From contig JAULSN010000011.1 in assembly GCA_033439765.1 (NCBI GenBank), positions 682,001 to 746,000 on the forward strand: a DNA stretch of 64,000 nucleotides. Reading direction: 5' to 3'. Under the pieces are notes generated by a model that was not told the DNA's origin, searched no databases, and saw nothing but the letters and a program-made list of their open reading frames with translations. This document shows, one piece after another, positions 35,201-62,079 of this stretch (position 1 is its first letter; each line of letters opens with the position of its first letter). Source of the stretch: Lasiosphaeria ovina (Eukaryota > Ascomycota > Sordariomycetes > Sordariales > Lasiosphaeriaceae). Made by a program: the position numbers and the translations under genes.

Positions 35201-36130
35201 TGGTCTGAATTTACACCCTTAGATTACCAGCCATGTCTTGGAAAAACTACACCAACTAGACCTCGACTACATGCGATGCATATTTCGTAGACAACGTTTC
35301 TTGGTTTCTGGCTCGCCCCAACAATCGTACTAGATGGTCGTTTGCACGCGCACGTTGCCAAGTCACGCGTTATTGAGTCTATGTAATTAATTATGAGAGC
35401 CGGAGTCGATGGCGAAGTCCAGGTCCGGAACCACGGGGCCTTGGATTGTCGAGGCCTAACACGCCAGTGTTGTTTGGTTGCTATCTCGGACTTTATTTGC
35501 CACATGTCCAAGGTGTTCATTCGAACATGAGTAAAAAGAATTATCAACATCTATCTAGGCTCAATTACCGGTTTCCTGATTTCGCTAACATGTCCAAATC
35601 CGTATTGTTTGACCTTGATCCCCTTTCCGGTAAAACCAACTGTCATCTAATCAATTGCAAGCGGGAATAGGTCACTGGCTGATCCGTTGTCTACACTCTT
35701 TGGGGTTCCGAGACTGAGAAAGTGTTGACAATTATTACCTTAGCTCTAATGACAAAACTCGAGGTGTTTGCAGCTTAGCTCACATCTCACAGCAAAGCCC
35801 AATCAGTCATGGCATGGCTAGCGGCGGAAATGCCGAGGCGTCAGCCGCAGCTAGCGGTCCGAGGCAGTTCCGATGCACGGCGTCCCGGTTCCGACTCGGT
35901 CCGACGCCCCGCTCCGACTTCTCCGACTGGCGCGCCGACTGCAGCTCCGGCCGGCGCCGACAGGGCGCACGCGGCAACAAACAAGCGGTTTGCGATATGC
36001 CCGGACTGGTATTTCAGGGGCGATAACGGCGCCGATCAGGAATATATCACTGATTGTCCCCTTGACATGTGCATCTCGACCCAGACGGCCATATCTCTAG
36101 TTATTCACAAGAAGAAAATAGACGGCAAAC
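29205..36130. other. Gene-poor 6.9 kb interval upstream of the P450
   Basis: No gene recognised on either strand. Several frames of 170-215 codons overlap one another between 30.8 and 31.7 kb and at 33.5-34.1 kb but have no domain or protein-like composition. Simple sequence is frequent: CCCATCCCATCCCATCC near 31074-31090, CACACAGACACG repeats at 33626-33660, (GC)n at about 34081-34100, (GCAC)n at 34488-34508 and GTAC palindromes at about 29990-30030. Bases 35.8-36.1 kb are GC-rich, hold several CCGAC words and are the likely P450 promoter. Confidence 0.5.
35891..35899. promoter_or_regulatory. Everted CCG-N3-CGG element upstream of the P450
   Basis: CCGACTCGG, about 230 bp before the P450 start codon, inside a run of five CCGAC words (35891-35939). 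CGG triplets arranged as an everted pair are typical contact sites of Zn2Cys6 regulators. Matching palindromes lie upstream of the hydrolase and in the PKS/ER promoter. Candidate only. Confidence 0.35.
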
Positions 36131-37908
36131 ATGGCGGGCATTGCCGAGTTCGTGCTGTCGCCGACGTTTCTGATCCTGGCGCCGCTGCTGCTGGTCATTG
36201 GCAATGTGGCGTCGTTTGTGCTGCGGACGCTGCGGCCCAAGGGGTTCCCGCCGGGGCCGGCGGTAGTGCCGGGGCTGGGCAACCTGTCGCAGATCGACAA
36301 GCGGTTCCCGTTCCGGTCGTACGGGACGTGGGCGGGCGAGTTCGGGCGGCACACGCCGCTGGGGATCAAGAAGGCGGCCAACAACGTCGTGGTGCTCAAC
36401 AGCGGGCGCCTGGTGCGCGAGCTGTTCGAGAAGCGCGGCGCCGTCTACAGCGACCGCCCCTGGCAGTACATCAACAACGAGTGGATCCTGGGCAAAGACC
36501 TGCGCCTGGCCCTGTTCACCAACAACACGGCCTGGCTGACGCGCTGGCGCCGCGAGTTCTCGCACATCTTCGACATGGCCGCCATCACGCGCTTCCGCCC
36601 CGTCTACGAGGCCGAGACGGCGCGCCTGCTGGTCAAGCTGGTCGAGGCGCCCCAGGCCCGCCGCCGCGACCTCGAGGACATCCTCGTGTGCTGGATCGTC
36701 AGCGTGCCGTGTCTGGGGCTGTGCGGCCGCCGCCCCGACGACCTGGGCGACCTCGACTTCAACGTCAAGCAGTTCCGCTTCGACCAGGAGCAGTACCTCA
36801 GCCTGCTGACCCCCGGCGCCGGCGACGTGTTCCCCCTGCTGCGCTACCTGCCCGAGGCCTTCGGGCTGGCGCCCTGGAAGGAGAAGGCGCGCTACGTGCG
36901 CCGCCAGCTGCTCAAGGCCGGCACGTCGTTCCTGGCCGCCGCCACCCAGCAGCGCGCCGCCCTCGACGCCGGCAAGTCCATCGCCTGGGAGAGCCTGCTG
37001 GCCAAGATCCTGCGCGAGCAGCGCGACGAGACGACCAAGAAGCACAGCAACAAGAAGGACGTCGTCTTCGACGTCAACGACATGGGCATGACGGGCATCC
37101 AGATCCTGTCGGCCGCCATGAACACGTCGCTCGCCGTCTTCTCCATCGGCCTGATGCTGCTGGCCAAGCACCCCGACATGCAGAAGCGCGCCCGCGACGA
37201 GGTGCTGCAGGTGTTTGCCGGCGCCCCGCCGCGCCCCGCCGACCTGGCCAAGCTCAAGTTTGTCGAGGCCTTTTACAACGAGGTGTGTCTCCCTCTCAAC
37301 TCCCCGTCGTCTCCCTTCATGTCAGCACACACATGCTAACCCACCCCGACTCCAAGATCTACCGGTGGCGGCCCGTGGCACCGCAGGCGGCCGCGCACGC
37401 GCCGTCGCAGGACGACGTGTTCGAGGGCCACGCGATCCCCAAGGGCACGTCGGTCATCGCCAACGTGTGGCACATCCACCACTCGGCGGACGACTACGAC
37501 GACCCGGACAAGTTCATCCCGGAGCGCTTCCTGGCGCACCCGTTCGGCATGCGCCCCGACGCGGCCCACGACCCCGCGCGCCTCGAGGGCTCCGGCCCGC
37601 GCCTGACCTACGCGTTCGGCGCCGGCCGCCGCATCTGCCCCGGCATGGACTCGGCGCGCCAGAGCCTTGTGCTGGGGCTCGCCAAGGTGCTGTGGGCGTT
37701 TGATGTGCTGCCGCCGGATAATGGTGACGAGATCGATCTGGACATTGAGACGGGGTTTATCTCGGACCTGGCGCTGCGGCCGAGGCGGTTTGATGTCAGC
37801 TTGAAGCTGCGCGAGGGCCGTACTAAGGAGGAGATCCTCGACCACTACCACCAGGCCTACGAGGGCCAGGCCGAGGTCATGGGCTGGGAGGGCGGCCTGT
37901 ACAGGTGA
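36131..37908 (+). CDS. Cytochrome P450 monooxygenase
   Basis: Model join(36131..37282,37357..37908), 567 aa. The 74 bp intron (donor GTGTGT, acceptor TCCAAG) splits the K-helix: exon 1 ends in glutamate 384 and exon 2 opens IYRWRPV, so the ExxR motif (E384-R387) exists only after splicing. An N-terminal membrane anchor (FLILAPLLLVIGNVASFVL) and a proline hinge (GFPPGPAVVPGLGN) indicate the ER membrane. The haem loop is FGAGRRICPG with Cys478. The I-helix oxygen-binding motif reads AAMNTS (residues 328-333) where most P450s have a Gly and an acidic residue before Thr. Layout fits the fungal O-methylsterigmatocystin-oxidoreductase-like P450s. It lies at the edge of the PKS cluster, convergent with the hydrolase, and is expected to oxidise the polyketide. 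Family certain, substrate inferred from context. Confidence 0.9.
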
Positions 37909-38555
37909 TTTACTCGGTCGGGGCTCAGACTAGGAGGGGGTTGCTGCACCTTGTCTTTGAAACGCTGCTTGACTGCAAAGGGAGTTGATGAATGGGGGTG
38001 CTGGTCAGGTGTTTCGAAGTTTGTTTTGCGCGTATAAAGATACAGATTACGGTCATGTCACACTGTTAGCTAGTCCAGGGCAAGCTGTCTGGCTTGAACT
38101 ATTTCTTGCTAGCAGTAGCGCAACACATCTTTGACACAGCAGAACTGCCTTTGACGTTGAGCTTAAAGCGGCTATTCTATCCTCACCTCTGGTGTATGCA
38201 GCCCATCCAAGAGCCCTGGCCGTCACATCTCCTGAGTGCTAGCCTGTCGTACTTGGAGCTCAGGCGCAGAGTTTGGCCCACTTGGTGTGTTGCTGCTTTC
38301 AAGCGAATCCTTTGCGGACTGTATATTGTGATTTGGACTGACTTGTTCACCACTTAACAGGTAGCTCTACACCGGCACCGGCCATTGAGGCCTTGTTTCC
38401 CCGCCCTTGTTTGTCTTTCTTGGACTAAATTCACAGAACGACACACGGCGAGACACGGCTTGAAAGCCAATGCAATAAATGTTTCATTCTAATATAATGA
38501 CTACCCGAAAAATGTCCATGAATAAAACAAATACGCCTCCCCCCCCAGCAACGGC
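37909..38555. other. Convergent spacer between P450 and hydrolase
   Basis: 650 bp between two 3' ends, holding both 3' UTRs. It contains an AATAAA-like word near 38473 on the plus strand and AT-rich blocks. No gene seen. Confidence 0.4.
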
Positions 38556-39588
38556 TCAAAAGTCCATGTGGCGCTTCAGAAAGTCGAGCTGCCGGTCCAG
38601 AATACTATCAACGTCGCCAAAGATCCAGTCGAGGTGGCCCTTGCCCTTGAGGATGTCGAGCTCCTTGGGCTCGTGCATGCGGTCGTAGGCGCGCAGCTGG
38701 TCCTTGGTGGGGCACGAGACGTCGAACTCGGGGGTGACCATGAGGGCCGGGGTCGGGGCGATGTACTCGACGAGGTTGAGCACGCTCCAGGACAGCGCGC
38801 GGTAGTAGGTCTGCACGGTCACGCGGTTCTCGACGGGTATGTTGAGCCGCTCCAGCGCCGGCATCATGTCGGCCGCCAGCTGCAGCCCGTTGGGCACGCT
38901 GCCGTCCTCGTTGACGTACGGCAGGTACATGGGATCCTCGCCCGCCAGCTGCTCCGCCCGGTCGTACATGGCCATTTCTAGGATTGGCTGCCGCCGATCC
39001 GGCAGCCCCGTCGAGTCGATCAGCGGCGCCACCGAGATCATGGCCGCGATCCGCTTGCTACACAGTCGAAAGTCAGAAGATGAGTTCATAATTAAAGGGG
39101 GGGGGGGGGGGGGGGGGGGATAGGCAGATGACGCACTCGAGCGCCGCCGCCGCCAGCGTCACGTTGCCGCCGAAACACAGCCCCCAGAGGGCAATCTTGG
39201 TCTCGTCGACGAGCGGGTTGTCGGACAGCCACGTCACGGCGTCGTGCAGGTGCTCAGCCTGCTGCCGGGGATCTATCTGTGCGCAAACACGTCGAGGTCA
39301 ACCACACTGCATTTCCCACAAAAAGGGGCAAACAACAACAAAACTCACATCGTTCCGCGGCTCGCCGTCGCTGGACCCGATGTTGCGCGGGTCGTAGGCC
39401 AGGCACGTAATGTCGCGCTCCTGGAACCACTTGGAGATGTCGGGGATGATGGCGTCCTTGGGCATGTTGAACCCCGGGGACAGGATGATGGCCGGCCCGC
39501 GCTTGGTGGCCGGGTACAGCCAGCCGCGCAGCGTCAGGCCATCGAGCGTGTTGAACTCGACGTCGTGGCGTGGCAGGTTTGAAGACAT
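38556..39588 (-). CDS. Alpha/beta hydrolase with cysteine nucleophile (GrgF-like candidate)
   Basis: Model complement(join(38556..39057,39137..39276,39349..39588)), 293 aa. Introns are 72 bp (donor GTGAGT, acceptor CACAG) and 79 bp (donor GTGCGT, acceptor TGTAG); the second contains a 23-base G run. The fold is a dienelactone-hydrolase-like alpha/beta hydrolase: GWLYPATKRGPAIILSPGF near residue 22, then the nucleophile elbow GLCFGG with Cys114 in place of serine, Asp239 in EFDVSC and His268 in GKGHLDW. These form a probable Cys-Asp-His triad. No signal peptide, so cytosolic. In HR-PKS clusters such hydrolases release the chain from the ACP. In the gregatin pathway the hydrolase GrgF both releases and fuses two chains, and as I recall it also uses a cysteine. 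Tandem with the trans-ER gene on the same strand. Family firm, exact reaction inferred. Confidence 0.85.
39097..39119. repeat. G23 homopolymer inside a hydrolase intron
   Basis: 23 consecutive G on the plus strand, lying in the second intron of the minus-strand hydrolase gene (as a C run in the transcript). It may be length-variable or a sequencing-prone site. Confidence 0.9.
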
Positions 39589-40650
39589 TTGCGCGCCTCT
39601 TTTTTGCTGTTGGGGGGTGGGGGGTGAAGGTGGATGGACAATGCGCGGTTGCAGAGGCAATTATTCGCTCAGGAGTCAGGGGTAATAACAACAGCAAAGA
39701 CTTTTAAAATGTGGGAACGGGACGACAAATTCTCTTTTACGTGCATGCAAGATTGCAGACAGACAGACAGACGGGAAGGGTTTCGATACTAACCGCGGCC
39801 AAGAGACAGCGCAATGCAGCTAGTAATTGCCTATTTAACTGTGCAGTGCGTGGCGGAGGGCCCGGAGTCTTGGCGGCGGGCTCGGCGTTCCGGTCGCGGT
39901 TCCGGCCCCGGCCCCGGCCTCGCGTCATCCGAGTCGGCGGTCGGCGCGCCCATGTCGCTCTTTTTGCGTTATATAATCCAAATGCAGGTTCTTGCGCCCG
40001 GCCGGTGTCCTCTCGGAGTTGCCGTCGCCGAGGCAGGGAGGGAGCGCAGCCAGTGTCGGCCCGGTGATTGCCTAATAGTGCTGATCGATTCGTCGTCAGA
40101 CCGACCAGTCTGCGGTCACGCTACGGATCTACTTGGCTAGCGATAATTGAAGCGGGCAAATTGGCAACTAATAACGGCTCAGCATGGTTTCTAGCACTCA
40201 AATGAGTAAAATCTAGCAATGAACGGTTCAGAGTCATTGAATGAAATGTGAGAGAACGAGGTGATCTGCAATTAATTAGGTGAAAGCTGCGCCCAGGGGA
40301 ATAACTAACCACCCAAGGAATTGTATGTAATTGAGTGTTTGCAGATTCAAAGCATCTTAGACATATCAATCAGAGTTACACTTGAACCGCTTGTTAAGAC
40401 TCTATGCTAGTGTAGAATTCGATTTTGAACCTAGTAGTTAATTAGAAGCAAAACGTATTCTACTTACTCCTCACTCCTCTATTGAGCTTGACGTGCCTAG
40501 TAGACCTACAATTCACTTGTGGCATGAATGTATAAGCGTATTTCATTCATTGTTCATTCATTACGCCTCCCCCAAACCCTACAGTGAATCAAATGGCCGT
40601 GACGACAGCAAAACAGACCACACAACCCCCAAAACTAGCTATCACCCTAA
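39589..40650. other. Hydrolase promoter and trans-ER 3' flank
   Basis: 1.06 kb. The first 400 bp upstream of the hydrolase is GC-rich, with GGCCCCGGCCCCGG words and a CCGAGTCGG palindrome at 39929-39937. The remainder is AT-rich and contains the 3' region of the enoyl reductase gene. No gene seen. Confidence 0.5.
39929..39937. promoter_or_regulatory. Everted CCG-N3-CGG element upstream of the hydrolase
   Basis: CCGAGTCGG, about 340 bp upstream of the hydrolase start, is the reverse complement of the element before the P450. Just beside it GTCGGCGCGCC (39940-39950) is the reverse complement of 35929-35939 in the P450 promoter, an 11-base match. Confidence 0.35.
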
Positions 40651-41772
40651 TCACCCAAGCAGCGGCAGCACCAGCTTCTTAGCATGCACCTTGCCAAGCC
40701 TCATGTCATCAACACCGTCAGTAATTCCCGCCAGCCCGCCCTCACGAATCTCAACAGGATGATGCCTGATAGCGCCATCACGCAGCCAGGCCTCCGCCTG
40801 TGCAAACAACTGCGTGCCAAACTGCTTATGCGCAGGCGTACTGGGGCGGCCGTAGGCGCCCTTCTTGTGGACGGGGACGCCGAGCAGCGAGGGGGCCATC
40901 AGCCAGTCGGCGCGCACGTCGCGGCGCGTGTACTTGACGGCGGCGGTGGGGGCCTCGAGCGCCACGTACGCGCCGCCCCCTGCCCCAATGGCCTCGTAGC
41001 TCGTCTTCATGCTGGCCGCGTCCGTCACGCAGTCCAGCACGTGGCGCAGCCCGTTGTCCGTGTGCACTCGGATGTCGGCGCCGCAGCTCGCCGAGTGGTA
41101 GTCAAAAGTCGCGGCCGCGCCGAAGGATGCGCACAGCGCGTCGTTGCTGGGCGAGCACGTCACGATGGGCGTGTAGCCGGCTCTGTTTGCGCGTCAGACA
41201 CTCGATGCCAGGGGCCACAGAGGGTAATTAACTCACATGCGCAGCAGCTGCGTGGCCATGGTGCCGGTCGCAGTGGCGCCGCCCGAGACGAGCACGACCT
41301 CGCCGGTGGCGGTGCCGGGCGCAGCATTAAACGGCAGGGCGAGGCCGGGGAGCTGGAAGAGGGCGAGGCCGGCGGTGGCGATGGCGAGGCCCATGGCGGT
41401 GGCGTCGGTGAAGGGCAGCGCGTCGGGGATGTGGCAGGCGAGGCCCTCGGTGGCGAGCGCGTACTCGGCGAACGCGCCCGCCGCCTTGTCGGCCGCGTCC
41501 ATGGGGAACGTGACGGCCAGCACGCGGTCGCCCGCGCGGAACCGCGTCACGCCGGCGCCAGCTGCGACGACGGTCCCCGCGAAATCGCACCCGCCCAGCG
41601 CCCCCGGCACCTGCGAGTAGTCGATGACCTTGGCGTCGAGCGGGTTGAGCGCCACGGCGTGCACCCGGCACAGGATCTCGCCCGGCCGAGGGGTGGGGAC
41701 GGGGAGGTCTGAAGCGAGGCGGTAGCCGCCTGCCTCGGCGCCCACGAGGGCCTTCATGGTGGTGGGGGACAT
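40651..41772 (-). CDS. Trans-acting enoyl reductase (LovC/GrgB type)
   Basis: Model complement(join(40651..41182,41237..41772)), 355 aa. The 54 bp intron has donor GTGAGT and acceptor AACAG and joins TQLLR to IAGYTPIVTCSP, a junction typical of this family. The start is the ATG opening MSPTTMKALV. The protein is a medium-chain dehydrogenase/reductase: GroES-like half with PRPGEILCRVHAVALNPLDAKV and GCDFAGTVVAAG, then a nucleotide-binding half with LVSGGATATGTMA. No zinc-binding cysteine pattern, as expected for a quinone-reductase-like NADPH enoyl reductase. Such stand-alone ERs dock on an HR-PKS that lacks its own ER and reduce enoyl thioesters at chosen cycles. The adjacent divergent PKS has no ER domain, which fits this partnership. 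Firm call. Confidence 0.9.
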
Positions 41773-42565
41773 GGTTTGCGGGTTTTCCTGTACGGCAAGA
41801 AAGAATTCTGGATAGACAAAGGACAAGCCAGCGTAAATGATGAGAGCAAACACAGGCGAGTCTGAACTCTGGACTTGTTCGTTGTTCGTTGTGTGTTGTT
41901 GTCGTCGTTTGTTCTGTTGCCTTCACAAAACGCACGAAGTACGTTGGACGTAATTAGAACTAAACAGCACTCGAAAGCCAACCTGCCGCCAGCCAAGTCG
42001 CAAGCCGCGTCGGTGTTATCGCAAACTCGGCTGTCCTGGCGCCGCCGACAGGGCGGACCGATCGGAGCCCGAAACGCAGTACGGTGTGGATGTCGGACAG
42101 CTCGGCCCGGTCAGCGCACTCCCCCCAAGTCGGCACCGCGAGATCCATGGTGATACTATGCAGCAGCACAGCGGCACCAGCCCGTCGATCGGCTTGCCGG
42201 GACCCAGCCGGTGTCGAGCGTGCGCGTTGTCCGGTCCGGCCCAAGGGAGGCAGGCAGGTTCGGAATGCCACAGGAAAACACAGCGTCCCGAGAGATCGCG
42301 AGATGACGAGCTCCGGGGGCACGCCCACATCGGCGACGTTCGGCCATGAATTCGTCCGGGACTCTCACAAAGCACCTCGCATTCTCGGCTTATATTACCC
42401 AGAACGGGCCTTAATCTCACCCCCGAATATTGTTTCCCCCAAGTCATCTGAAGCCTTTTGCTCCAGAGGTTTCTCCAGCCACTAGTTTCAACATAGCCCC
42501 CCCTTTCTTTCCGCCCTCTTTACCTACCTTGGGTATCTGGCATCGCACACTTGAGAGTCTTCAAC
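41773..42565. promoter_or_regulatory. Divergent promoter of trans-ER and HR-PKS
   Basis: 793 bp between head-to-head start codons, so the two partner enzymes are likely co-expressed. It contains a CCGATCGG palindrome at 42058-42065, an overlapping TCG-N5-CGA word (TCGGAGCCCGA, 42062-42072), which is the AflR binding consensus, and GCCGACAGGGCG at 42044-42055, identical to 35956-35967 before the P450. No functional proof. Confidence 0.55.
42062..42072. promoter_or_regulatory. AflR-type TCG-N5-CGA site candidate
   Basis: TCGGAGCCCGA matches the published AflR consensus TCG(N5)CGA. The cluster regulator at 52-53 kb is an AflR-type Zn2Cys6 protein. Six fixed bases in 0.8 kb can occur by chance, so weight is modest. 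Confidence 0.35.
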
Positions 42566-45500
42566 ATGGGCAGCCAAGTGTTGGACAGCGGCTTCTATGC
42601 CCGCGAGCCCATTGCGATAGTGGGCAGCAGCTGCCGCTTCCCCGGCGGCGCAACGTCACCCTCCAAGCTATGGGAGCTGCTCGAAAACCCGCGAGATGTG
42701 GTTCAAGAGATCCCAGCCAGCCGCTTTAGCACCCAGGCATTCCACCACCCAGACAGCCAGCACCATGGAGTGGGTAGACCCTTTCTTGGCTACGCTTGTG
42801 ACTTGTCACTAACCAAGGGCACAACCGCACAAACAGAGCGCCAACGTCAGGCACGCGTACCTACTCGACGATGACCCGCGCGTCTTCGATCGCGACTTCT
42901 TCGGCATCAACCCTAAGGAGGCCGAGGCCATGGACCCGCAGCAGCGCGTGTTGCTCGAGACGGTGTACGAGGGCGTCGAGGCGGCGGGCTACTCGATGGA
43001 GCAGCTGCGGGGGTCGCCGACGGCCGTCTTCGTCGGGTGCATGAGCTTCGACTACCAGTTCGTGGCCATCCGTGGCATCGACAGCCTGCCGCAGTACCAC
43101 GCGACGGGTGCCGCCATGTCCATCCTGGCCAACCGCGTGTCCTACTTCTACGACTGGCGGGGCCCTTCGGCCGCCATCGACACGGCCTGCTCGTCGAGCC
43201 TCGTCGCCCTGCACCAAGCCGTCGCCGCCCTACGCAACGGCGACGCCACCATGGCCGTGGCCGCCGGGTCCAACCTGATCCTAGGGCCCGAGCCCTTTGT
43301 TGCCGAGTCCAAGGTACTTATTACCTTTTTGTCTGCCATGCATTCACTGCCATGCCGCCCTTGGAGAGTGTCAAGACACGAGCTAACAGACGCCTAGCTC
43401 AACATGCTGTCACCCAACGGACGGTCCTACATGTGGGATGCCTCCGCCGACGGCTACACTCGTGGCGAGGGTTTCTCGGTGGTACTCCTCAAGACCCTCA
43501 GCCAGGCTCTCGCCGACGGCGACCACATTGAGTGCATTGTCCGCGAGACTGGCGTGAACTCGGACGGCAAGACACCGGGTATGCCTGCTCGCACCCCCCC
43601 CCATACCTGGCAAGAAGCCCCATATTCGAGATACTTACCTGTGGTTGTTTTTAGGCATCACCATGCCGAGCTCCGAGGCACAGGCACAGCTCATCCGCGA
43701 CACTTACGCGCGGTGCGGACTCGACCCGACTCGGGAGTCGGACCGGCCGCAGTACTTTGAGGCCCACGGCACGGGCACGCCGGCGGGAGATCGTAAGCGA
43801 CTTACCTTGCCTGCCTTTCCATACCTTGATCATCCCAAGCATCTCTTCCAGCAGCTGCACAGGCACTAACACAGCTCGCCAAACTAGCCATCGAAGCGCG
43901 GGCCATCCAAAGCGTCTTCTTTCCCGAAAGCAGTGCCGACGCCAGCGACGGCGAGCTGCTGGTCGGCAGCATCAAGACCATCATCGGGCACACCGAGGGC
44001 ACGGCGGGTCTGGCGGGCGTGCTCAAGGCGTCGCTGGCGGTGCAGCACGGCCTGGTGCCCGCGAATCTGCACTTCAAGCAGCTCAACCCCAAGCTGCGGC
44101 CCTACTACACCAACCTGCGTGTGCCGACCACCACGGTGCCCTGGCCCGCGGTGCGCGCAGGGTCGCCGCGCCGTGTCAGTGTCAACAGCTTCGGCTTTGG
44201 CGGCACCAACGCTCATGCCATCATCGAGAGCTGGGACCCCGCCGACAGCGCACTGCAGCTGCTGCCCAATTCCTATGGCGCAGGGCCCTTTGTGCTGTCA
44301 GCCAACTCGGCCGCGGCGCTGGCCGGCAGCGCGGGCGCTCTGGGGGCGTACCTGCGCTCGCAACCCGCTACGCACCTGGGGCGGCTGGCGCACACGCTAT
44401 TCCGGCGCAGTGACCTGCCGTTCCGGGCCGCCTTCTCGGCATCTTCAGCCGAACAGCTCGCTGACAAGCTCGAAGCCGCGAGCAAAGATCCCGCCATCAT
44501 CAACACGCGAGGCACTAGTCCTCTGCCGGTGTCGCTGCCGCCGCGGATCCTCGGCGTGTTCACGGGACAGGGAGCCCAGTGGGCGGGCATGGGGCGCGAG
44601 CTATACGCGTCGTCGGCAGTGTTCCGGCGGGCCATCGACGGGATGCAACACAGCCTAGACACGCTCCCCGAGGAGGAACAACACAACAGGCCCAGCTGGA
44701 CGCTCGCCGAGCAGCTCACGGCAACAGCCGAGACATCACGCGTCGGGGAGGCGCCCGTCTCGCAGCCGCTGTGCACGGCACTGCAGGTTGCGTTAGTCGA
44801 CGTGGCGCACGCCGCGGGCATCGAGTTCAGTGCCGTGGTCGGCCACTCGTCAGGCGAGATTGCCGCGGCGTATGCTGCGGGCTATCTCAGCGCCGACGAC
44901 GCGATCCGCGTGGCCCATTTCCGTGGCGTGCACTCGGGTCTCGCGCAGGGCCCCGGCGGTAAGCGCGGCAAAATGATGGCCGTGGGTCTGTCGCTGGAGC
45001 AGGCGCGGCGCTTCTGCGGAGAAGGAGAGTTTGGAGGCGGGTCGCTGGTGGTTGCGGCCAGCAACTCGTCAACGAGCTGCACGCTGGCAGGCGACGCCGA
45101 GGCCATCGACGCGGCGCGCGCGGGGCTCGAGGCCAAAGGCACCTTTGCTCGCGTGCTCGCTGTTGACACGGCGTACCATTCGCACCACATGCAGCCGTGC
45201 GCGGGGCCATACTTGGCGTCGCTACAGCGGTGCGGAGTCCGCGTGCTCGACAAACAGGAACGACGCCGGGTGGTGTGGTACTCGAGTGTGTGGGGGTCTG
45301 ACGGCCGCAGCAAGTCGTTTGACGACGACGGCGGCGACCTGCTCGCGGGCCAGTACTGGGTCGACAACCTGACTCGGCCGGTGCTCTTTAGCCAGGCCGT
45401 GGCGCGCGCTATCCATGACGACCAGGTCTTTGACGTGGTGCTCGAGGTCGGCCCGCACCCGGCGCTCAAGGGCCCAGCGTCCGAGACCATCAAGGCGCTG

Positions 45501-48500
45501 GCCGGCGTGTCTCTGCCGTACTCGGGTTTGTTGAAGCGCGGCCAGAGCGCCACTGAAGCCCTCGCCGACGCCCTGGGTCTGCTGTGGAAGACCTTTCCCT
45601 CACCACTTCCTCTGGTCACCTTTGCTGGTATCCGCCGCGCGTTTCCCAGCAGCGACGGCCACCTCAAACAGAAACAGCAGCAACAGCAGCAGTTGGCCAT
45701 CATCAAAGACCTCCCCACGTATTCGTGGGACCGCCACGCGGGGTTGGTGTGGAAGGAGTCACGAGCGTCTCGCATCTTCCGCACGCAGGGTCTCAAGCCG
45801 CGCCACGAGCTGCTGGGCCACGCCGTCACGCATGGCGAGCGTCACCGCCGCGAGGTACACTGGAAGCAGGTGATCCGGCTTGGAGAGCTACCATGGCTGC
45901 GCGGCCACAAGATCCAGAACGAGGTGCTGTTCCCCGCGTCCGGGTACGTAGCCATGACGTACGAGGCCGCGCTGCGCCTTGTCGACCTCGACGACGACCA
46001 ACAGCAGCAGCAACAACAACAACAGCAGCAGCAACAACAACAACAACAGCCGCCTTCGATACGGCTCATCGAGATGCACGACATCGACATCGTGCGCGTC
46101 ATGACGCTCGAGGAAGATTCGTCCGGCCTCGAGGTGCTGTTTACCGTCCACGTGACATCGCAGTCAGCGACGTCCATCACGGCGACGGTGGCGTGCTACA
46201 GCGGCGCCATCGACGCGGCCTCTCAGCAGCTCGATACGGCGCAGGCCGGGCTGACGGCGCACTTTACTGGCAGCGTGCGCGTCTGGCTGGGCGCGGCTGA
46301 CGAGAAGGCGCTGCCAGACCGCACCGCGCCGCTGCTGCCCCTCGATGCCCTCGACATGGACGCCGTGTATGCGAGCCTCGACAAAGAGGGCTTCAACTAC
46401 TCGGAACTGTTCCGCGCCAAGTCGATGCTGCGCCGGCTCAACCACTCCGTCGTTACCGTTTCCGACCCTCCGCCTCCGGCCGTGGCTGGGACGGCAGTGC
46501 GTGCGTCCACCCACCCGGCCCCTGTCGATACCGCAATCCAGGGGCTTCTGGCGGGCTTTTCGTTTCCAGGCGACGGTCGCATCGGCACCACATATCTGCC
46601 GACGCGCATCGAGAGTGTGAGGGTCAGCATGGCAGCTCCGTCAAAGTCCGAGTCAGGCCCTGTCCTCACGGCCGACAGCGTCGTAACGTCGGCAGACGGA
46701 AGCACGCTGACAGGCGACATTGACATATTCGACGCGGCAGACGGGCACACAGAGGTGCAGCTGCGCGGGGTGCGCATGACGGCGGTCGGGCAGCGGCGGA
46801 CGGACCGGTGGCTGTACGCAGGCACCTCTTGGGCGCGGGAGGCATCCTACGGCATCGAGCCCGGGCTGGGCGCGCGCTTCTCGGCCAGCGAAAGCGAGCT
46901 GTACGAGCAGCTGGTGCGCACGGCCTACTTCTATTTGCGGCATCTGCGCAGCAAGATCCGGCCCGTCGAGCTGAAGCTGATGGGCAAGTTCCGCAAGCAC
47001 ATGATGAAGTGGGTCACGGAGCACCTGCTCCCCGAGATCGACGCTGGGAAGAACCCTGACATCCGCCCCGAGTGGGCCTCCGACACGCTCGAAACCATCA
47101 ACAGTTGGCGTGCCGCGCAGCCCGCCGACAACAACGACATGAACCTGCTGCACGCCATGGGTCAGAGCTTGGTACCCATCGTGCGCGGCACCGTGCCCCC
47201 CCTGAAGGTGCTTGTGCAGGACGGCATGTTGGACCGGCTGTACTTTGAGGGTCTGGGCTTCAAGGACGGTAACGTTGACCTAGGCGCCGTCATCGAGCAG
47301 CTGGGCCACCAACACCCTCGCATGCGCATCGTCGAGGTCGGCGCTGGCACGGGCGGCACCACGCGCACCGTGCTGTCGGCGCTCGGCACGAGATACTCGA
47401 AGTACACGTACACGGACATCTCGACGGGCTTCTTCGAGAACGCGCGCAGCGTCTTCAGCGCCCATGCCAGCCGCCTTGCCTTCAAGACGCTCAATATCGA
47501 GAACGACCCGTCCACACAGGGGTTTACTGCCGGCTCCTTTGACATGCTCATCGCGTCCAACTGCCTGCATGCAACACGCAGCCTCGAGGAGACGCTGCGC
47601 CACTGCCGCCAGCTGCTGCGGCCGGGCGGTCGTCTCGTACTGCTCGAGATTACGCGCGACTTTTTGCCCATCCAGCTGATCATGGCCACGCTGCCTGGCT
47701 GGTTCCTAGGCATGGACGAGGGCCGCGTCTGGGCACCTACCGTGTCTCTCGAGCGCTGGGACGAGCTGCTCAAGGCAACGGGCTTCTCGGGCGTCGACGT
47801 CAGCTCGACCCCGTCCTACTGCTCCGTCATCGTGTCGCAGGCCGTCGACGAGACGGTCCAGCTCCTGCGCGAGCCCCTGACTGTGACTGCGACGGCTCCT
47901 CTAGGCACTTTGCCGCCGCTCGGCGAGATCGTCATCATCGGTGGCGGCTCGAAGCTTGCAACCCAGACGCAGGCCCTCCTGCGCGCCGCTGTCCCCACGG
48001 CAAAAGCCGTCACCATCATACCAAGCCTCGAAGAAATTGGGGAGCTACCCTCAGGCGCGGCGGTGCTCTCCTTGAGCGAGCTAGTGGCAGGCCCCGCATT
48101 CCGCAACATGACGGCCGCACGGTTCCGTGGGCTGCAGGCGGTAGTGCAGACGGCCAGCGCAGTACTATGGGTGACGGCAGGCGCCAAGTCTGGAAGGAAC
48201 CCCGAGGCCAACATCACGGTCGGTCTGAGCAGCACGCTGCTGGCCGAGCGGAGCGATCTGCGGCTCCAGTTCCTTGATGTTGACGACGACGTCGATAACC
48301 CGGCGGCAGCAGTCGACCCGTCCCTGTTGGCGACACTGTTCCTTCGCCTCGCGTTCACGGATGACCGCCAGACGCCGGAAGAAGAGGGCCCGCTCTGGCC
48401 ACTGGAGCCTGAGCTTGCCCTAAAGGGCGGCGCTGTCTACATCCCCCGTGTGGTCTCGCTCGACGCCGTCAACCGCCGCTCGGCTGCGCGGTACCGCCCC

Positions 48501-50726
48501 ATCACGCAGACGGTCAATCTCGCGGGGACAAACACGGCGGCAGCAGTCTTGGTGGCCGAGCGCCCGGGCGGCGCATTCGAGCTGCAGACCGTTGATCCCC
48601 AGCAGATTCTTCCCCCTTTACCAGGCAGCCCTGCAGGCCAAGACGTAGGCGAGAAGCAGCAGGCGTCGCCGCTACTGCAGCTGCAGGTCACGGCATCCTC
48701 ACTCTGGGCCGTAAGCGGCGGATTCCACGTGGTCGTGGGCCACGATCTAGCATCGGGAGACGAGGTCTTAGCTCTTTCCCAGTCAAACAGCTCACTAGCC
48801 ACCATTGCCAAGCAGGACCACGTGCTGCATCACTGGCATAGCGCTGACGTAGCCGAAGACGACACCAAGACGGAAAAGAATTCGGCCAAGCTGCTGCACA
48901 GCTTCCTCGCGCAAGCCCTAGCCGCACAACTACTGCGCGACGTGCAGCAGCGGCAACAGGCAAAAGCTGCGCCAGTCTGGATCCACGGCGCGCCACAGGA
49001 CCTCGGCGCCGCCATTTACGCCGTGGCCCGTGAGCGTGGTGTGGCCGTCGTCCAAACCACGTCGGACCCGACGCGGGCAGCAACACCGGATGCTAACGTT
49101 GGCTTCATCCACCCGTACGCTAGCGAGCGGGACCTGCAGCAGCTGCATGGTCTGGGCCTAGGCGCCGCTAAGAGTTTGCTTGTCAACCTGCAGCCGACGC
49201 AGCCAAACGAGGCGCTGGCGGCGCTGGTCGGGCGAGCTTCTTCCTTGTTAGCCTTTGCTGTTGTGAACAAGGAGGTTAAAGAGCTGGTGGTCGGGTTGAG
49301 TCTCGCGGAGCTTAGCAGTCTAGCGGCCACGCAGCAGGCCCGCCTTTCCAAGGAAGAAGACGAATACCCGTTCCAGGACCAGGTGGTGGGCATCGACAAG
49401 ATATCCGCTGAGACGAGAAGCAAAGAAGAGCTGGGCCCCACTGCCGTGGTTGACTGGCGTGCTACTGCTGCCGCCAGCGATGACAAGAACAGGAACACCG
49501 TCACGGCCGTGGTCCGCCCGCTCTCGCACAGCGGCCTGTTCTCTCCCGACAAGACATACCTACTCTTCGGCATGACGGGCGACTTGGGTATCTCGGTGAG
49601 CGGGTGGATGGTAGCGCAGGGGGCGCGACATATTGTGCTAGCAAGCCGAACGCCCCGCGTGCCGAGCAGCGTGGTGTCGTACTTTGCCACGCACCACGGC
49701 GCCGTGGTGCGCACGCTGGCTGTCGACATCACCGACAAGGCGTCGCTGGCGGCGGGGCTTGCATCCATTGCCGACCTCCCGCCCGTCGGTGGCGTCATGA
49801 ACGCTGCCATGGTGCTGCGCGACCGGCTCTTCGGCGACATGACGTGGGACGACGACTTCGAGGCGGTGCTGGGTCCCAAGGTTCAGGGAACACTGAACCT
49901 GGACGACGTGTTTGGGGAGAAGTCGGGGCTAGACTTCTTCATCTGCTTCTCGTCAGCAACGTCCATCGTCGGCACCATCGGGCAGTCGGCATACGCGGGA
50001 GCGAATCACTTCATGGCGGGGCTGGTGCGGTCGCGCCGGGGCCGCGGGCTGGCGGCGTCGATCGTGCACATCTCCGTGCTGACGGGGCTAGGCTACATCT
50101 TCCGGCGCGACGCGCATCACACGTCGGCCATCGACAAGGCGCTGCTGCCGCGGCTCGTGCGCCAGGCCGAGACGGACCTGCACGAGATGCTGGCCGAGGC
50201 CATCGTGGGCGGCCGTCCCAACTCTGGGTCGGTGGCCGAGCTCATCACGGGCGTGCGCACCGCGTTCGTGGGCACGTGGCGCGACGACGCGCGCCTGTCG
50301 GGGTACCTGGGGCAGGAGCAGCTTGAGGACAAGGCGTCGCAAGAGCGGGCGGCATCGGCGGGTACAGTGAGCGTGCAGGTACAGCTGGTCGCAGCTGGCG
50401 ACGACGCAGCGGGGGCGCTCGCGGTGCTGCAGGAGCGGTTCACGCAGGCGCTGGGCGCCATGCTCGAGATGGACGCGGCGCAGATCGACGGCAGTCGGCC
50501 CGTGGCCAGCCTGGGCATCGACTCGCTGGTCGCTATCCGCATCCGCGAGTGGTTTCTGCGCGAAGTTGGTGTCGAGGTCCCCGTGCTCAAGCTCATGTCC
50601 AACAATGGCTCCCTGACGCGTCTGTGTGACGATGTCTTGGTTGATTGGCGGAAGCGCGTGAAAAAGGCTGCCGAAGATGACAAGGACAAGGACAAGGACA
50701 AGGCGAAGGTCGAGAACAAGAAGTGA
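42566..50726 (+). CDS. Highly reducing polyketide synthase, KS-AT-DH-cMeT-psiKR-KR-ACP
   Basis: Model join(42566..42769,42837..43313,43398..43578,43655..43792,43888..50726), 2,612 aa; four introns of 67-95 bp near the 5' end, all in phase. KS: Cys186 in DTACSSS, His325 in EAHGTGT, His368 in IGHTEGT. AT: Ser654 in GHSSGE. DH: His1007 in LRGHKIQNE and Asp1214 in VDTAIQ, both intact, with a polyglutamine insert at about 1038-1055. cMe[10 protein letters not shown] near 1485. Residues about 1650-1950 fit a structural pseudo-KR. KR: GMTGDLG at 2228 and Tyr2369. ACP: Ser2546 in LGIDSL. No ER domain and no thioesterase, condensation or reductase domain after the ACP; the protein ends in an Asp/Lys-rich tail. 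It should make a C-methylated reduced chain with the trans-ER and need the hydrolase for release. First splice donor (GTGGGT) is the least certain. Domain order certain. Confidence 0.93.
45999..46050 (+). repeat. CAG/CAA repeat coding polyglutamine in the PKS DH domain
   Basis: A mixed CAG/CAA tract encodes an uninterrupted glutamine run of about 18 residues between the DH catalytic His1007 and Asp1214. Probably a surface loop insertion, and likely length-variable. Confidence 0.9.
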
Positions 50727-52049
50727 TCGCTAGTTATCCGAGTAGAGGGCTCGGAGGGGGGCACCAAGTTTGGCTTTATTTGGGATTTCTTTGACACATT
50801 TAGCTCTGGCTTCCAGGGTAGATTGCAGATTGAACCATGATGATTCTTCGGCGGATGGTGGGATGGGGTTTTGGGTTGGAATTTTAAGTTGGTCTCGATC
50901 CTTGGGCCGCGAGAAGACATTAGACTTAGATTTTGGTGTTGCGGAGTTGCGGAGTTGCTGTCTCGGAGTTTATCTAAATTTACGCGTTACCACTTCAAGA
51001 CCGTGCGCACCTGCCGTACCACGGACTATTACATAAGGTAAAGCTTCGCTCGGATAGATAGGTAAATTACGGTACCTAGCTCATTTAAACGTTGGGCATT
51101 TACATTGCCCAGTAAAGAAGAAGATGAGATTCAAGATCAAAACCAAAAGGCTAGCTCATCTTAAGAACTCTGTGCTCGCAGTCACGTCGCTCTGAACATT
51201 AGGATTCTATCAGATTTCATCCCAGCACTTAGGTCCGCCTAGCAAGCCTCCCTAGGTACCTTAAGTACTTCAACTTGGAATTGTGACGTGCTAGGATTCG
51301 ACCAGGTACTTAAGCCATGTAATTGGTGCAATTTAAACACCCTCTCTAGCTAGAGTCTTTTACTGGGCCGAATTATCTAAGAGTTGGAATTATCGAGCAT
51401 GACGATGGGGCCACAGGCTATCCGGAACGGCTACCTTTATCATAGCTGTTGATAATCTGAAGTAAGTGTACTTTCTCTGGGTCATTGGTTGACTCGCACA
51501 GCCCGGTGGATCAAGGAGCGCAAAACAGCTCTTGGCTGGTTAGTCTGTTTCGCTGCTTGGGACACCATAAATAACACTGGTAAAAAAAAGAAAAAAAAAG
51601 GGATATTGTTTCTTGTGATAAGTTCCCCAAAGTCCAATATTCAAGTCTAACTGCCTTATCCTATGTAGAGCGCCACCGATGGTCCGGTAAACAAGACATG
51701 CGTACATAAATGAGCAAATCCCCGACTCCCCGAGGCGCCAGTGCATGCTTTTCGAATCAAGCCTTGACACGAAAATATTCCCCTTCACGATTCTGGTTAC
51801 CTGAATAATGAGTTAGCACTTCATTGAGCAAATCAGAGCTGACGGGGCACAGGGGCAGGTAAGGCTTTGTACTTACTATTTCCCCGGCTTCCTAATCATT
51901 CCAAATTTAATTCCTGCGACTTTGAACCAGTCTAGTCTTTGCGGCCGACGAGAGAATAAACACCTAGACCCCTGCAAGACTATGCGTATATAAAGAACAA
52001 AATCCCAATCAAGATGACGCCCGGTCCCCTCCCATCCGCCCCCCAACCG
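50727..52049. other. Convergent spacer, PKS to regulator
   Basis: 1.3 kb between two 3' ends, AT-rich after 51 kb. Several TAGGTACCTAGG-like words occur, as in other gene-poor parts of the window. No gene seen; an 82-codon minus frame at 51540-51788 has no features. Confidence 0.45.
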
Positions 52050-53412
52050 CTATTGGAGCTCCGAGTGCTCCATCTTTGTCTGCAGCTCCTGGATCACCTG
52101 CCTGAGCTTCTCGTGTCCATCCGGTATTGCCCTCACAATTGCTTGCGCAAGTGTGGGAAGGCACTGCGGTGCCGAGCCTCCCCCTACCATCAGAAGGGGG
52201 TTTATGGCTGAGCTGTAGATGCTGCCCATGCTGGGCGTGTCGGGGGTCATCTGGCCGCCGCTAGACGACTCTGAACCGAAGCCCAGGGATTTGTTAACCT
52301 GGAAGAGGCCCCGGTCAACGCGATTGATTAGGTGCATCAGCAGCTGGAGGACCATAACGAACTGGGCGACAGATGAGGGCCCTACTTCGCCGTGGTGTAG
52401 GCTTTGCTGCTGCTGCTGTTGCTGCTGGTTCTCGTTCTCAGAGGCCATGGATTCCAGGCACCGGTTTATGGCCTCGCAGATCGCCCTGAACAGAGCCATG
52501 AGGTGCTGGTGGGAGGCCAGGGCCAGGAATACCAGGCCAAAGTCGGCGGTGGCCGGGTCGATTGTAAAGTCTTCGCGATCTGAAGAGGCGGCCGTGATGT
52601 TGTTCACGATGCGTATTAGATTGTTTGTGTCTTCAAAGGCCTCGTTCACCTCAGGCGACGATACTGTCGGAGGCGCGCAGCCCGGGCGGCCAAGACGGCG
52701 CATTGACCGCGTGGTCCTCTGGCTAATTGCCGTCAGCTGCAGAGAGAGGGCGTCGGCAGCGTCGTCGTCGTTGTCGCCGTCTTCGGGGGTGGATGGGCCA
52801 GCGGAAATGGCGCGAACGTCGTGGGCGCCCCCGAACGCGTCGGCGCCCGACTGTGCCGCCATGGTACTCGGCGGTGAAATTGGAGAAAACGGTTGGATTG
52901 TTTCCCAGCCATGGAAGCCGGTGAGGCCCCCCCTACCGCCACTGCTGCTGGCGTCGTCAACGCCGGGGAACGGAACCATCAGGTCTATCGACCCGCCGGC
53001 TGGACAAAACACGCCGGCCAGGCCTTGATTGAACCATGACGTGCTGCTAATCCCGGTATTGGCGTTACTAGGATCGAGATTTGCGTCTCTTCGCGTCGCG
53101 GGCTGGGCACCAGAAGAGGTGCGAGTCGGCCTTTGTTTGACTGCATGAGTGCCGCGGAGAAGGACGGTGGCGCGTTGGTTAGCTGGCGGAACTGGACTCC
53201 GCGGAAATGCGAGGAGGGAATTGAGGACAGAACATACGACTGTAGACACAATCGACATCGGCTTTGGCGCAGCGCTCGCAACGAGTGAGCGACGACCGGT
53301 TGCGGGAGGCGGCGGGATTGCTTCCTGGACCTGCCCCTTGCGATTGAGATTCGGCTTGAGGGCATCGCACCTTTTGTTGCCGACAGCGGTCACACGAGTG
53401 TCGGTGAGACAT
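52050..53412 (-). CDS. Zn2Cys6 transcription factor, AflR-type
   Basis: Model complement(join(52050..53140,53238..53412)), 421 aa. The 97 bp intron (donor GTATGT, acceptor CATGCAG, branch GCTAACC) follows directly after the zinc cluster, at CVYS, a common position in AflR-like genes. The binuclear cluster is C7-x2-C10-x6-C17, a long 27-residue linker, then C45-x2-C48-x6-C55. A Ser/Pro/Thr-rich linker follows, then a polyglutamine patch (about eight Gln) inside a helical C-terminal domain ([20 protein letters not shown] and [19 protein letters not shown]) that resembles the AflR regulatory domain. It probably activates the cluster genes from the nucleus. It is convergent with the PKS and lies at the cluster edge. 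Family firm, target genes inferred. Confidence 0.85.
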
Positions 53413-60257: not shown

Positions 60258-62079
60258 ATGGCCGCCGTCGCGAGTGGCGACCTTGAGAAGGGCGCTCTGG
60301 CGGGCCTGCAGCGCGGCGCTCGGAGTGACCGCGACTCTGAAGTTGCCAGTGCTAAGCCAGAGTCGGCTCCCGGTAGCGAGACTGAACGGGACCCCGAAGA
60401 CGCCAAGGAATCAGGTTCCGATGACAAGACTGGTGCTGCCGCCACGGCATTGCAGGACGCAGGCCCCCCTGATGGTGGTGCCGCTGCATGGCTAGTCGTT
60501 CTCGGCGCCTGGTGCTGCTCCTTCTGCAGCCCTGGTTGGATCAACAGTGCGTTCTTCTTTTTCCCGCTTTTTTTTCACATCCACTTCTTCTTCTCGATAT
60601 ACCCCGCCTGCCCGCCTGCCTGCCTGCCTACCTCCCCTGGTGATTGCCCAGGCGGTGATGACATAGGGGGCTAGGATGAGGTGTGGCATCCAACAGTAAG
60701 CAGTAGAGAGAATATGGACGCCGCTTGCTGACGGCATTGCTCCCCCTCCCCCACCAGGCATGGGTAGCTTCCAGGAGTACTACGAGCTCGGTCCTCTGAA
60801 AGAATACTCCAGCAGCACGATTGCGTGGATCCCGTCGCTCCAGCTGTTTTTCCTGTTCGGCCTGGGCCCAATCGTCGGCATCCTGTTCGACAGATATGGG
60901 CCGAGACCGCTCATCATCGCCGGGACCATCCTCCACGTCTTTGGCCTGATGATGGCGTCGCTGGCGACGACCTACTACCAGTTCGTCCTGTCCCAGGGCG
61001 TGTGCAGCGCCATCGGCGTCGCCTGTCTATACTCGCCTGGTAGGTCCAATATTCCCAAACCCCGTTCTCCCATCTTCACCGGCCTCTTGTGTCTATCCCC
61101 AAAGCTGACCGAATCGTGTGCCAAATCAAGCGCTGGCCTGCATATCGACATGGTTCAACAAGAAGCGCGGAGCGGCGATGGGCATCATGGCCACGGGCTC
61201 GTCGGTCGGCGGAGTCGTGTTCCCCATCATGATCAGCCGCATGATCAAGCTCAACGGGTACCCCTGGGCGCTGCGGACGGCCGCCTTCCTCATCCTCGGC
61301 CTCCAGATCGTCGCCTGCCTGACGGTGCGCTCGCGAACCAAGCCCGTGCCCAAGAAGCTGCCCGCCGGCCGCCTCGCCGCGCCCTTCACCGAGTCCGGCT
61401 TTGCCGTCCTGCTCTTCGGCATCTTCGTCCTCACCTTTGGCATGTACATCCCCATCGACTACCTGCCCTCGCAGGGCTACAATGAGGCGCACATGACCGA
61501 GGAGATGTCGCAGTACTTGGTCGCCATCCTGAACGCTGCAAGGTAAGCTAGAACCCCCCCCCCCCCCCCCCCCCCCCGAAACATTTCTCGTCTTTTTTCA
61601 AGAAAAAACAAAAATGCTGCGGGACGCTGACAGTTTTCCCCTTCACCAGTCTCTTTGGGCGTCTGGGCGCGGGCTACGGCGCGGACTGGATCGGGCGGTG
61701 GAACATGTTCATCATCGCGTGCCTGGTGTCGGGGATCTCGAGCCTGGCCATCTGGATCCCGGCGCAGACGGGCGGGATCACGATCGGGTACGCCATCGCG
61801 TTCGGGTTCGCGTCGGGCGCGTTCGTGTCGCTGGTCGGCGCGCTGCCCATCTCCGTGTCCCCTATCCCCGAGATCGGCTACCGCATGGGCATCGTGTTCC
61901 TCGTCATCTCCATCCCCGCTCTGACCATGGCCCCCATCGGCGGCGCCATCCTGCAGACCGCCGCCAACGGCTGGCTGTCCCTCAAGCTGTTCGCGGGTAT
62001 CATGTGCATCGCCGGCTCCTTGATTATTCTCTGGTCGCGCATGCTCTACACCGACAAGAAGCTCCTGAAGCTGTTCTGA
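60258..62079 (+). CDS. MFS monocarboxylate-type transporter, four exons
   Basis: Model join(60258..60546,60758..61039,61131..61542,61650..62079), 470 aa. Introns are 211, 91 and 107 bp with donors GTGCGT, GTAGGT and GTAAGC; all joins are in phase. A polar N-terminal tail of about 75 residues precedes PDGGAAAWLVVLGAW, the signature start of the fungal SLC16-like (MCT) family. Next come SMGSFQEYY, a FGLGPIVGILFDRYGPRP loop of MFS type, and about 12 membrane helices ending near LIILWSRML. It sits in the plasma or an organelle membrane and moves small acids or related molecules with protons. It could export the polyketide but is 6.8 kb beyond the regulator, so cluster membership is open. The third intron holds a run of 24 C (61554-61577). 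Confidence 0.85.
61554..61577. repeat. C24 homopolymer inside an MFS intron
   Basis: 24 consecutive C in the third intron of the transporter gene, shortly after the donor site. Comparable to the G23 run in the hydrolase intron. Confidence 0.9.

What the first reader, a model, noticed from the sequence alone, without database searches (positions are those of the whole stretch)
36131..53412. Compact polyketide cluster whose enzyme set matches the two-chain-fusion (gregatin-type) logic
Seen: an HR-PKS without ER or release domain, a divergent trans-ER, an alpha/beta hydrolase with a Cys nucleophile, a P450 and an AflR-type regulator. From memory of the literature: in the gregatin pathway one PKS (GrgA) with trans-ER GrgB makes two different chains and hydrolase GrgF joins them by a Claisen-type step. 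Inference: this locus may make a chain-fused furanone or a related product. A simpler LovB/LovC/LovG-like release pathway is the main alternative.
Basis: partly seen in the sequence, partly recalled or inferred. Interest (0 to 1): 0.85.

Follow-up and report, generated by a model that had tools for sequence, protein, structure and literature searches.

The report
Gregatin-type chain-fusing polyketide gene cluster
This fungal DNA carries a set of genes closely related to those that make gregatin, in which one enzyme builds two different carbon chains and a second enzyme joins them into a furanone; it looks like a new member of a known kind of pathway, in a fungus that also holds a second, related set.

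Summary
The hydrolase is 79.5% identical over 292 residues to GrgF, the gregatin chain-fusing enzyme (6lzh, E 6e-168), keeps the Cys-Asp-His triad, and shares a 100/100 clade with it. The P450 is 63% identical over its full length to GrgG, the gregatin P450. The PKS (KS-AT-DH-cMT-KR-ACP, no ER, no release domain) groups with PKSs of Cadophora gregata, Penicillium and Aspergillus. LovG-type release is disfavoured: no FSH1 match. Corrections: an MFS transporter at 60258-62079 belongs to the cluster; the regulator is Zn2Cys6 but shows no AflR domain; no O-methyltransferase (GrgD, recalled) was found nearby, so a free acid or otherwise modified gregatin-like furanone is expected. New here: a paralogous six-gene cluster on contig C28, and placement in a side lineage otherwise made up of some Hypocreales. 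The fujikurin enzymes themselves were not at hand, and the product is untested. New member of a known kind.

The parts
36131..37908 (+). Cytochrome P450, GrgG-like; exons 36131-37282 and 37357-37908; 567 aa
   Evidence: PF00067; 63% identity over 100% to GRGG_PENSQ (P0248); haem motif FGAGRRICPG at 471 and EIYR at 384
38556..39588 (-). GrgF-like alpha/beta hydrolase (proposed chain-fusing enzyme); three exons; 293 aa; triad C114-D239-H268
   Evidence: 6lzh GrgF E 6.3e-168; 232/292 identical; tree; triad; motif
40651..41772 (-). trans-acting enoyl reductase, LovC-like; exons 41772-41237, 41182-40651; 355 aa
   Evidence: LovC 3b6z E 8e-67; PF08240, PF00107
41773..42565 (.). shared divergent promoter region between trans-ER and PKS
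   Evidence: gene models
42566..50726 (+). Highly reducing PKS, KS-AT-DH-cMT-KR-ACP, no ER and no release domain; exons 42566-42769, 42837-43313, 43398-43578, 43655-43792, 43888-50726; 2612 aa
   Evidence: Pfam; active-site motifs aligned with 13 relatives; tree
52050..53412 (-). Zn2Cys6 transcription factor with a 27-residue loop inside the zinc cluster; one intron, ends unsure (about 53237-53141)
   Evidence: PF00172 20.3 bits, below the 21-bit cut-off; homologue in the paralogous C28 cluster
60258..62079 (+). MFS transporter, cluster member by paralogy; coding pieces 60757-61023, 61154-61534, 61663-62076 and an upstream piece from 60258; intron ends not resolved
   Evidence: PF07690; 59-75% identity piece by piece to the MFS gene of the C28 cluster; start codon and stop

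Best explanation
A six-gene GrgF-type chain-fusion cluster. Inferred from the gregatin pathway: the PKS builds a longer pentaketide chain (C11, so presumably C-methylated) when the trans-ER acts and a short diketide without it. The Cys-dependent hydrolase takes one chain as a thioester on Cys114 and joins it to the other by a Claisen-type condensation. The P450 then closes the oxidised furanone ring. The regulator switches the genes on and the MFS protein exports the product. As no O-methyltransferase was found nearby, the product is expected to be a gregatin-like furanone left as the free acid, decarboxylated, or methylated by an enzyme encoded elsewhere. Shown here: gene content, homology, clade membership, catalytic residues. 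Inferred: every reaction and the product.
For: GrgF 6lzh is the best solved match by 350 bits, 79.5% identity, clade 100/100. The Cys-Asp-His triad is kept in 25 of 25 further clade members. GrgG match 63% over full length. The PKS lies in one starred clade with Cadophora gregata, Penicillium daleae and P. verhagenii PKSs, and its KS, AT, cMT, KR and ACP motifs are intact. Three enzyme trees place this locus beside the same set of Hypocreales (hydrolase 96/91, PKS 99, P450 92 unstarred). 16 of 25 clade hydrolases share a contig length with a PKS or P450 hit. Related pathways outside GrgF's own branch are also thought to fuse two chains: fusamarin PKS8, outside this clade in my PKS tree (PMC10947347, passages), and fujikurin (PMC10290801, passages).
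Against: No O-methyltransferase was found, whereas the gregatin A cluster has one (GrgD, recalled). The hydrolase lies in a side branch (4 rows, 96/91) and not in GrgF's own sub-branch. GrgA and GrgB were not compared directly: no listed PKS row bore the name GrgA, and no GrgB sequence was sought. For fusamarin the authors propose that the KS domain fuses the chains and the hydrolase only releases the product, so homology alone does not prove that this hydrolase fuses. Nine of 25 clade hydrolases show no linked PKS or P450 in the partial contig list I compared. No metabolite or expression data.
Confidence: 0.87

Rival explanations
1. A LovB/LovC/LovG-like system: the hydrolase only releases a single finished chain as an acid.
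For: The PKS has no release domain and the trans-ER matches LovC, as in lovastatin. An alpha/beta hydrolase beside such a PKS is often a release enzyme (general knowledge).
Against: No FSH1 (LovG family, recalled) match among the Pfam hits of the hydrolase at E up to 0.001; Cys nucleophile; 79.5% identity to the chain-fusing GrgF; a GrgG-like P450 is linked. LovG and brefeldin thiohydrolase sequences were not in my tree.
Confidence: 0.06
2. Chain fusion happens, but the two chains or the ring closure differ from gregatin, so the product is another chain-fused scaffold (fujikurin-like, fusamarin-like or new). This is a sub-case of the best explanation as far as fusion goes, and a rival only for the product.
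For: The locus sits in a side lineage; no O-methyltransferase found; the DH motif has Asn where 12 of 13 relatives have Gly. Related clusters make other fused products (passages). Several PKSs inside the clade are labelled 'Polyketide synthase 19', the fujikurin PKS name, by their annotators, and one clade hydrolase is labelled after the fujikurin enzyme FFUJ_12241, so fujikurin may be closer than my trees could show.
Against: A GrgG-type P450 is kept, while the five fujikurin genes listed in PMC5468452 (passages) include none; the motif GLCFGG is that of GrgF and of 15 of 25 other clade members, while 14 of 14 checked rows outside the clade but nearest to it read GLCFDG.
Confidence: 0.25
3. 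The cluster is decayed or silent and makes nothing.
For: No expression data; the MFS gene lies 6.8 kb from the rest; the public annotation holds a P450 model shortened to 466 aa (P0242).
Against: The five core reading frames are open, the active-site residues checked are intact apart from the Gly-to-Asn change in the DH motif, and the same six genes are kept in a second cluster.
Confidence: 0.07

Closest known systems
Gregatin A (grg) cluster, Penicillium sp. sh18 (GrgA, GrgB, GrgF, GrgG, GrgD)
   Same: HR-PKS without ER, trans-ER, GrgF-clade Cys hydrolase (79.5% identity), GrgG-like P450 (63%)
   Different: No O-methyltransferase found nearby (GrgD recalled); the hydrolase, PKS and P450 belong to a side lineage; GrgA and GrgB not compared
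Fujikurin PKS19 cluster, Fusarium fujikuroi
   Same: PKS, trans-ER, hydrolase, transporter and regulator listed (PMC5468452, passages); said to be likely to join two chains from one PKS (PMC10290801, passages)
   Different: The five genes listed include no P450. The F. fujikuroi sequences were not at hand: rows labelled 'PKS19' fall both inside the clade (for example Conoideocrella) and outside it (F. oxysporum)
Fusamarin PKS8 cluster, Fusarium mangiferae
   Same: PKS, trans-ER, alpha/beta hydrolase and Zn2Cys6 regulator; chain fusion proposed by its authors
   Different: The F. mangiferae row labelled PKS 8 is 47% identical, lacks a methyltransferase Pfam domain and is outside the clade; the paper lists four genes and no P450, and assigns fusion to the KS domain
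LovB/LovC/LovG (lovastatin)
   Same: HR-PKS lacking ER plus trans-ER (LovC, 229 bits)
   Different: Hydrolase shows no match to the LovG (FSH1, recalled) family
PDB 7d78, 'DltD domain-containing protein'
   Same: Same hydrolase superfamily (210 bits)
   Different: Ser nucleophile; far branch of the tree

Membership tests
GrgF-type chain-fusion PKS clusters | HR-PKS with KS, AT, DH, KR, ACP, no ER and no release domain | tested here: met
   Pfam; motifs, (DH motif HxxxGxxxxP reads [10 protein letters not shown], Gly to Asn)
GrgF-type chain-fusion PKS clusters | dedicated trans-acting enoyl reductase beside the PKS | tested here: met
   LovC homologue E 8e-67, divergent neighbour of the PKS; GrgB itself not compared
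GrgF-type chain-fusion PKS clusters | alpha/beta hydrolase of the GrgF clade with Cys-Asp-His triad | tested here: met
GrgF-type chain-fusion PKS clusters | joins two polyketide chains made by one PKS | not testable with these tools
   needs enzyme assay or metabolite analysis
Gregatin A (grg) cluster proper | GrgG-type P450 for the oxidative ring closure (function recalled) | tested here: met
   63% over 100% to GRGG_PENSQ; same group in the tree (34 rows, SH-aLRT 90; 37 rows, 100)
Gregatin A (grg) cluster proper | GrgD O-methyltransferase (recalled, no sequence at hand) | tested here: inconclusive
   no methyltransferase domain in Pfam scans of 27301-36100, 39589-40650, 50727-52049 (five of six frames) and 53413-62300; it could be encoded elsewhere in the genome
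Gregatin A (grg) cluster proper | makes gregatin A (C11 + C4 chains, methyl ester) | not testable with these tools
   no metabolite data
Fujikurin PKS19 cluster | PKS and hydrolase orthologous to F. fujikuroi PKS19 and FFUJ_12241 | not tested
   F. fujikuroi sequences not at hand; only labels of other species' proteins were seen
LovB/LovC/LovG | release hydrolase of the FSH1 family (recalled for LovG) | tested here: not met
   no FSH1 family among Pfam hits at E up to 0.001

The most novel reading that the evidence does not exclude
The lineage to which this locus belongs (Lasiosphaeria with Fusarium, Conoideocrella, Tolypocladium, Dactylonectria and Mariannaea) is a distinct, unmethylated branch of chain-fusing clusters with its own product, and L. 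ovina runs two such fusion lines side by side (C3 and C28), making two different fused products, the C3 one perhaps acquired from a hypocrealean fungus.
Probability: 0.3. Interest if true: 0.55.

Novelty: new member of a known kind. Interest (0 to 1): 0.42.

Why it matters
[quoted passage not shown] This locus gives a further natural lineage of that enzyme with its PKS, ER and P450, plus a paralogous set in the same genome. Because the authors of the fusamarin work give fusion to the KS domain and not to the hydrolase, comparing these relatives would make the open question of which enzyme joins the chains, and what turns a releasing hydrolase into a joining one, directly testable; the motif difference GLCFGG/GLCWGG against GLCFDG is a place to start. 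It also predicts gregatin-like chemistry in a genus for which the listings showed no report.

Tried and rejected
LovG-type release as the main reading: disfavoured on family, nucleophile and tree. AflR-type regulator: not borne out by Pfam at E up to 1. A whole-genome family search for methyltransferases was set aside as proof of absence, because it scored 28 of 96 candidates and did not list the methyltransferase domain of this cluster's own PKS; I used Pfam scans of the flanks and gaps instead (in one search one minus-strand frame was scanned twice and one not at all). For the C28 cluster only two stretches were scanned, so a methyltransferase there is not ruled out. The stretches of L001-L003 beyond the window got a codon-usage scan only. 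A shared regulator site: CCGASTCGG occurs 4 times in the window against 0.73 expected (1 of 100 shuffles reaches 4), two of the four upstream of the P450 and the hydrolase; chosen after looking at the promoters, so kept as a lead only. Descent from within Hypocreales: the AU test gives p 0.038 against holding six hypocrealean PKSs together without the query; other Hypocreales (Purpureocillium, Trichoderma) fall in the other branch, so this is suggestive only. Structure prediction was not run, as a solved 79.5%-identical structure exists. The gregatin paper (10.1021/jacs.0c02337) is not held; its details on GrgG, GrgD and Cys115 are recalled. Searches with Conoideocrella and with the grg gene names gave nothing further in their listings.
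Full report
The locus and the organism. The window is C3:682001-746000 of a 51.7 Mb assembly in 32 contigs. C3 is 1,248,210 bases long, and the protein search found a Lasiosphaeria ovina P450 on a contig of exactly that length whose aligned stretches match this P450 at 100% (P0242). The window is therefore taken to be Lasiosphaeria ovina (Sordariales). The public P450 model has 466 aa and lacks about 100 residues that my 567-aa model holds.

What is there. Five genes lie at the stated place: P450, hydrolase, trans-ER, HR-PKS and a Zn2Cys6 regulator; coordinates and splice sites are. The PKS carries KS, AT, DH, methyltransferase, KR and PP-binding domains and no ER or release domain at E up to 0.001. 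Its KS (DTACSSS), AT (GHSSGE), methyltransferase ([10 protein letters not shown]), KR (SAYA) and ACP (GIDSL) motifs line up with those of 13 relatives, a few of which are gapped or differ at single motifs; the DH motif has Asn where 12 of 13 relatives have Gly and one has Thr.

The hydrolase. The best solved match is GrgF (6lzh), E 6.3e-168 and 561 bits; the second, 7d78, has 210 bits. Without gaps 232 of 292 residues are identical to GrgF, and Cys114 aligns with residue 115 of the 6lzh chain; that Cys115 is the GrgF nucleophile is recalled. In a tree of 55 rows the hydrolase, GrgF and 25 fungal proteins form one clade (100/100); within it this protein sits with Fusarium mexicanum, Fusarium sp. 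NRRL 52700 and Conoideocrella (96/91), beside and not inside the branch that holds GrgF. The 25 fungal clade members, GrgF and the query all read Cys-Asp-His; among all 120 listed homologues 59 read CDH, 43 SDH and 18 have gaps or other letters there, many rows being fragments. Around the Cys, the query, GrgF and 15 of the 25 read GLCFGG, 8 read GLCWGG and 2 GIC(F/Y)GG, while 14 of 14 checked rows nearest to but outside the clade read GLCFDG.

The P450 and the PKS. The P450 is 63% identical over its whole length to Cytochrome P450 monooxygenase grgG (GRGG_PENSQ, P0248) and sits in a 34-row group with it (SH-aLRT 90; the 37-row group around it has 100). The PKS is 61% identical to one of Cadophora gregata (P0148) and 64% to one of Penicillium daleae (P0133); all lie in one starred 33-row clade with the query. 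Gregatin A was first isolated from Cephalosporium gregatum (PMC10657286, passages), which I recall to be the older name of Cadophora gregata. In the three trees this locus joins a group whose other members are Hypocreales, beside the branch with the gregatin-type proteins (hydrolase 96/91, PKS 99, P450 92); other Hypocreales, Purpureocillium and Trichoderma, lie in the latter branch of the hydrolase and PKS trees.

Linkage elsewhere. For 16 of 25 clade hydrolases a PKS or P450 hit was recorded on a contig of the same length (14 with PKS, 7 with P450, from a partial list typed). Locus tags show neighbours: P450 and hydrolase in Talaromyces pinophilus (TCE0_018f06241/06242), Conoideocrella (QQS21_010584/010585) and Didymosphaeria (N0V89_006557/006558); PKS and hydrolase two numbers apart in Hymenoscyphus fraxineus (HYFRA_00001651/00001653) and Cercophora (OQA88_3278/3276). 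This fits the order seen here: P450, hydrolase, trans-ER, PKS.

A second cluster in the same genome. The only other place listed with a GrgF-like hydrolase is contig C28. Around it lie homologues of all six genes; the matched stretches are PKS 2071957-2080158 (minus), trans-ER from 2081043, hydrolase 2082856-2084095, regulator 2086059-2084288 (minus), MFS 2087450-2088794 and P450 2089929-2091729. The MFS pieces match those at 60757-62076 in the window at 59-75%, which is why I count that MFS gene in. In the trees the C28 hydrolase falls with proteins of Cercophora, Chaetomium, Colletotrichum, Podospora and Microdochium, and the C28 P450 with Chaetomium and Microdochium, so the two clusters are old relatives and not a recent copy.

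What is missing. Pfam scans at E up to 1 of 27301-36100, 39589-40650, 50727-52049 and 53413-62300 show the MFS transporter, a PIR-type cell-wall protein upstream, and otherwise only weak, unrelated hits; none is a methyltransferase (five of six frames). A codon-usage scan shows no further coding-like frame above its threshold from 29.2 to 36.1 kb or from 53.4 to 60.7 kb, though it also missed the first MFS piece. The gregatin A pathway ends with an O-methyltransferase, GrgD (recalled). So gregatin A itself is not predicted from this locus alone; a free acid, a decarboxylated product, or methylation by a distant enzyme are open.

How it most likely works. Reviews describe GrgA making a longer pentaketide with GrgB present and a shorter diketide without it, and GrgF fusing the two (PMC8902786, passages), the chains being C11 and C4 (PMC8948627, passages). 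By homology the same is inferred here. The fusamarin PKS8 row of Fusarium mangiferae lies outside this clade in the PKS tree, and the authors of that work also propose fusion of two chains, though by the KS domain with the hydrolase releasing the product (PMC10947347, passages). Fujikurin is likewise thought likely to come from two chains of one PKS (PMC10290801, passages). Chain fusion is thus claimed around this locus in the tree, but which enzyme does it is not agreed for the outer group.

Novelty. Gregatin-like and fujikurin-like clusters have been noted in other genomes, for example by antiSMASH and Blast in Phacidium infestans, where one region matched both gregatin A (55%) and fujikurins (66%) (PMC10657286, passages), and a Trichoderma harzianum PKS was grouped with gregatin's (PMC10532697, passages). 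Compounds of the class were reported from Aspergillus, Cephalosporium, Paraconiothyrium, Penicillium and Pulvinula (PMC6151570, passages). I found no report for Lasiosphaeria in the listings; the two papers were seen as listings only. It is a new member of a known kind, with a tailoring gene not found nearby and a paralogous partner as the points of interest.

Noticed in passing
C28:2071957-2091729 of the same genome (loci L012-L014): A second, paralogous six-gene chain-fusion-type cluster; its hydrolase (P0025) belongs to a separate sub-branch with the motif GLCWGG.
   Followed up: partly
42566-50726, 38556-39588, 36131-37908: PKS, hydrolase and P450 join a group otherwise made up of Hypocreales although the host is Sordariales; holding six hypocrealean PKSs apart from the query is weakly rejected (AU p 0.038). 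Possible horizontal transfer.
   Followed up: partly
35891-35899, 39929-39937: CCGASTCGG palindromes about 240 bp upstream of the P450 and 340 bp upstream of the hydrolase; 4 in the window against 0.73 expected, 1 of 100 shuffles reaching 4. Possible Zn2Cys6 regulator site.
   Followed up: partly
45903-45935 (PKS residues 1006-1016): The DH motif reads [10 protein letters not shown] with Asn in place of the usual Gly; Conoideocrella has Thr there. Effect on chain reduction unknown.
   Followed up: no
36131-37908 and 42566-50726: The public L. ovina P450 model (P0242, 466 aa) lacks about 100 residues of this gene, and no row named Lasiosphaeria appears among the best 120 PKS hits: public gene models here may be incomplete.
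   Followed up: no
19476-21864: HET-domain stretch followed by ankyrin repeats, a likely heterokaryon-incompatibility-type gene upstream of the cluster.
   Followed up: no
27911-28940: PIR1-like cell-wall protein gene (minus strand) upstream, the nearest recognised gene on that side of the cluster.
   Followed up: no
proteins P0147, P0151, P0168 (PKS hits): A next-door PKS lineage (e.g. Trypethelium, Chaenotheca, Penicillium angulare) lists extra NAD-binding Pfam domains such as PF07993 and PF01370 and still has a linked GrgF-like hydrolase with GLCFDG: possibly reductive release combined with such a hydrolase.
   Followed up: no
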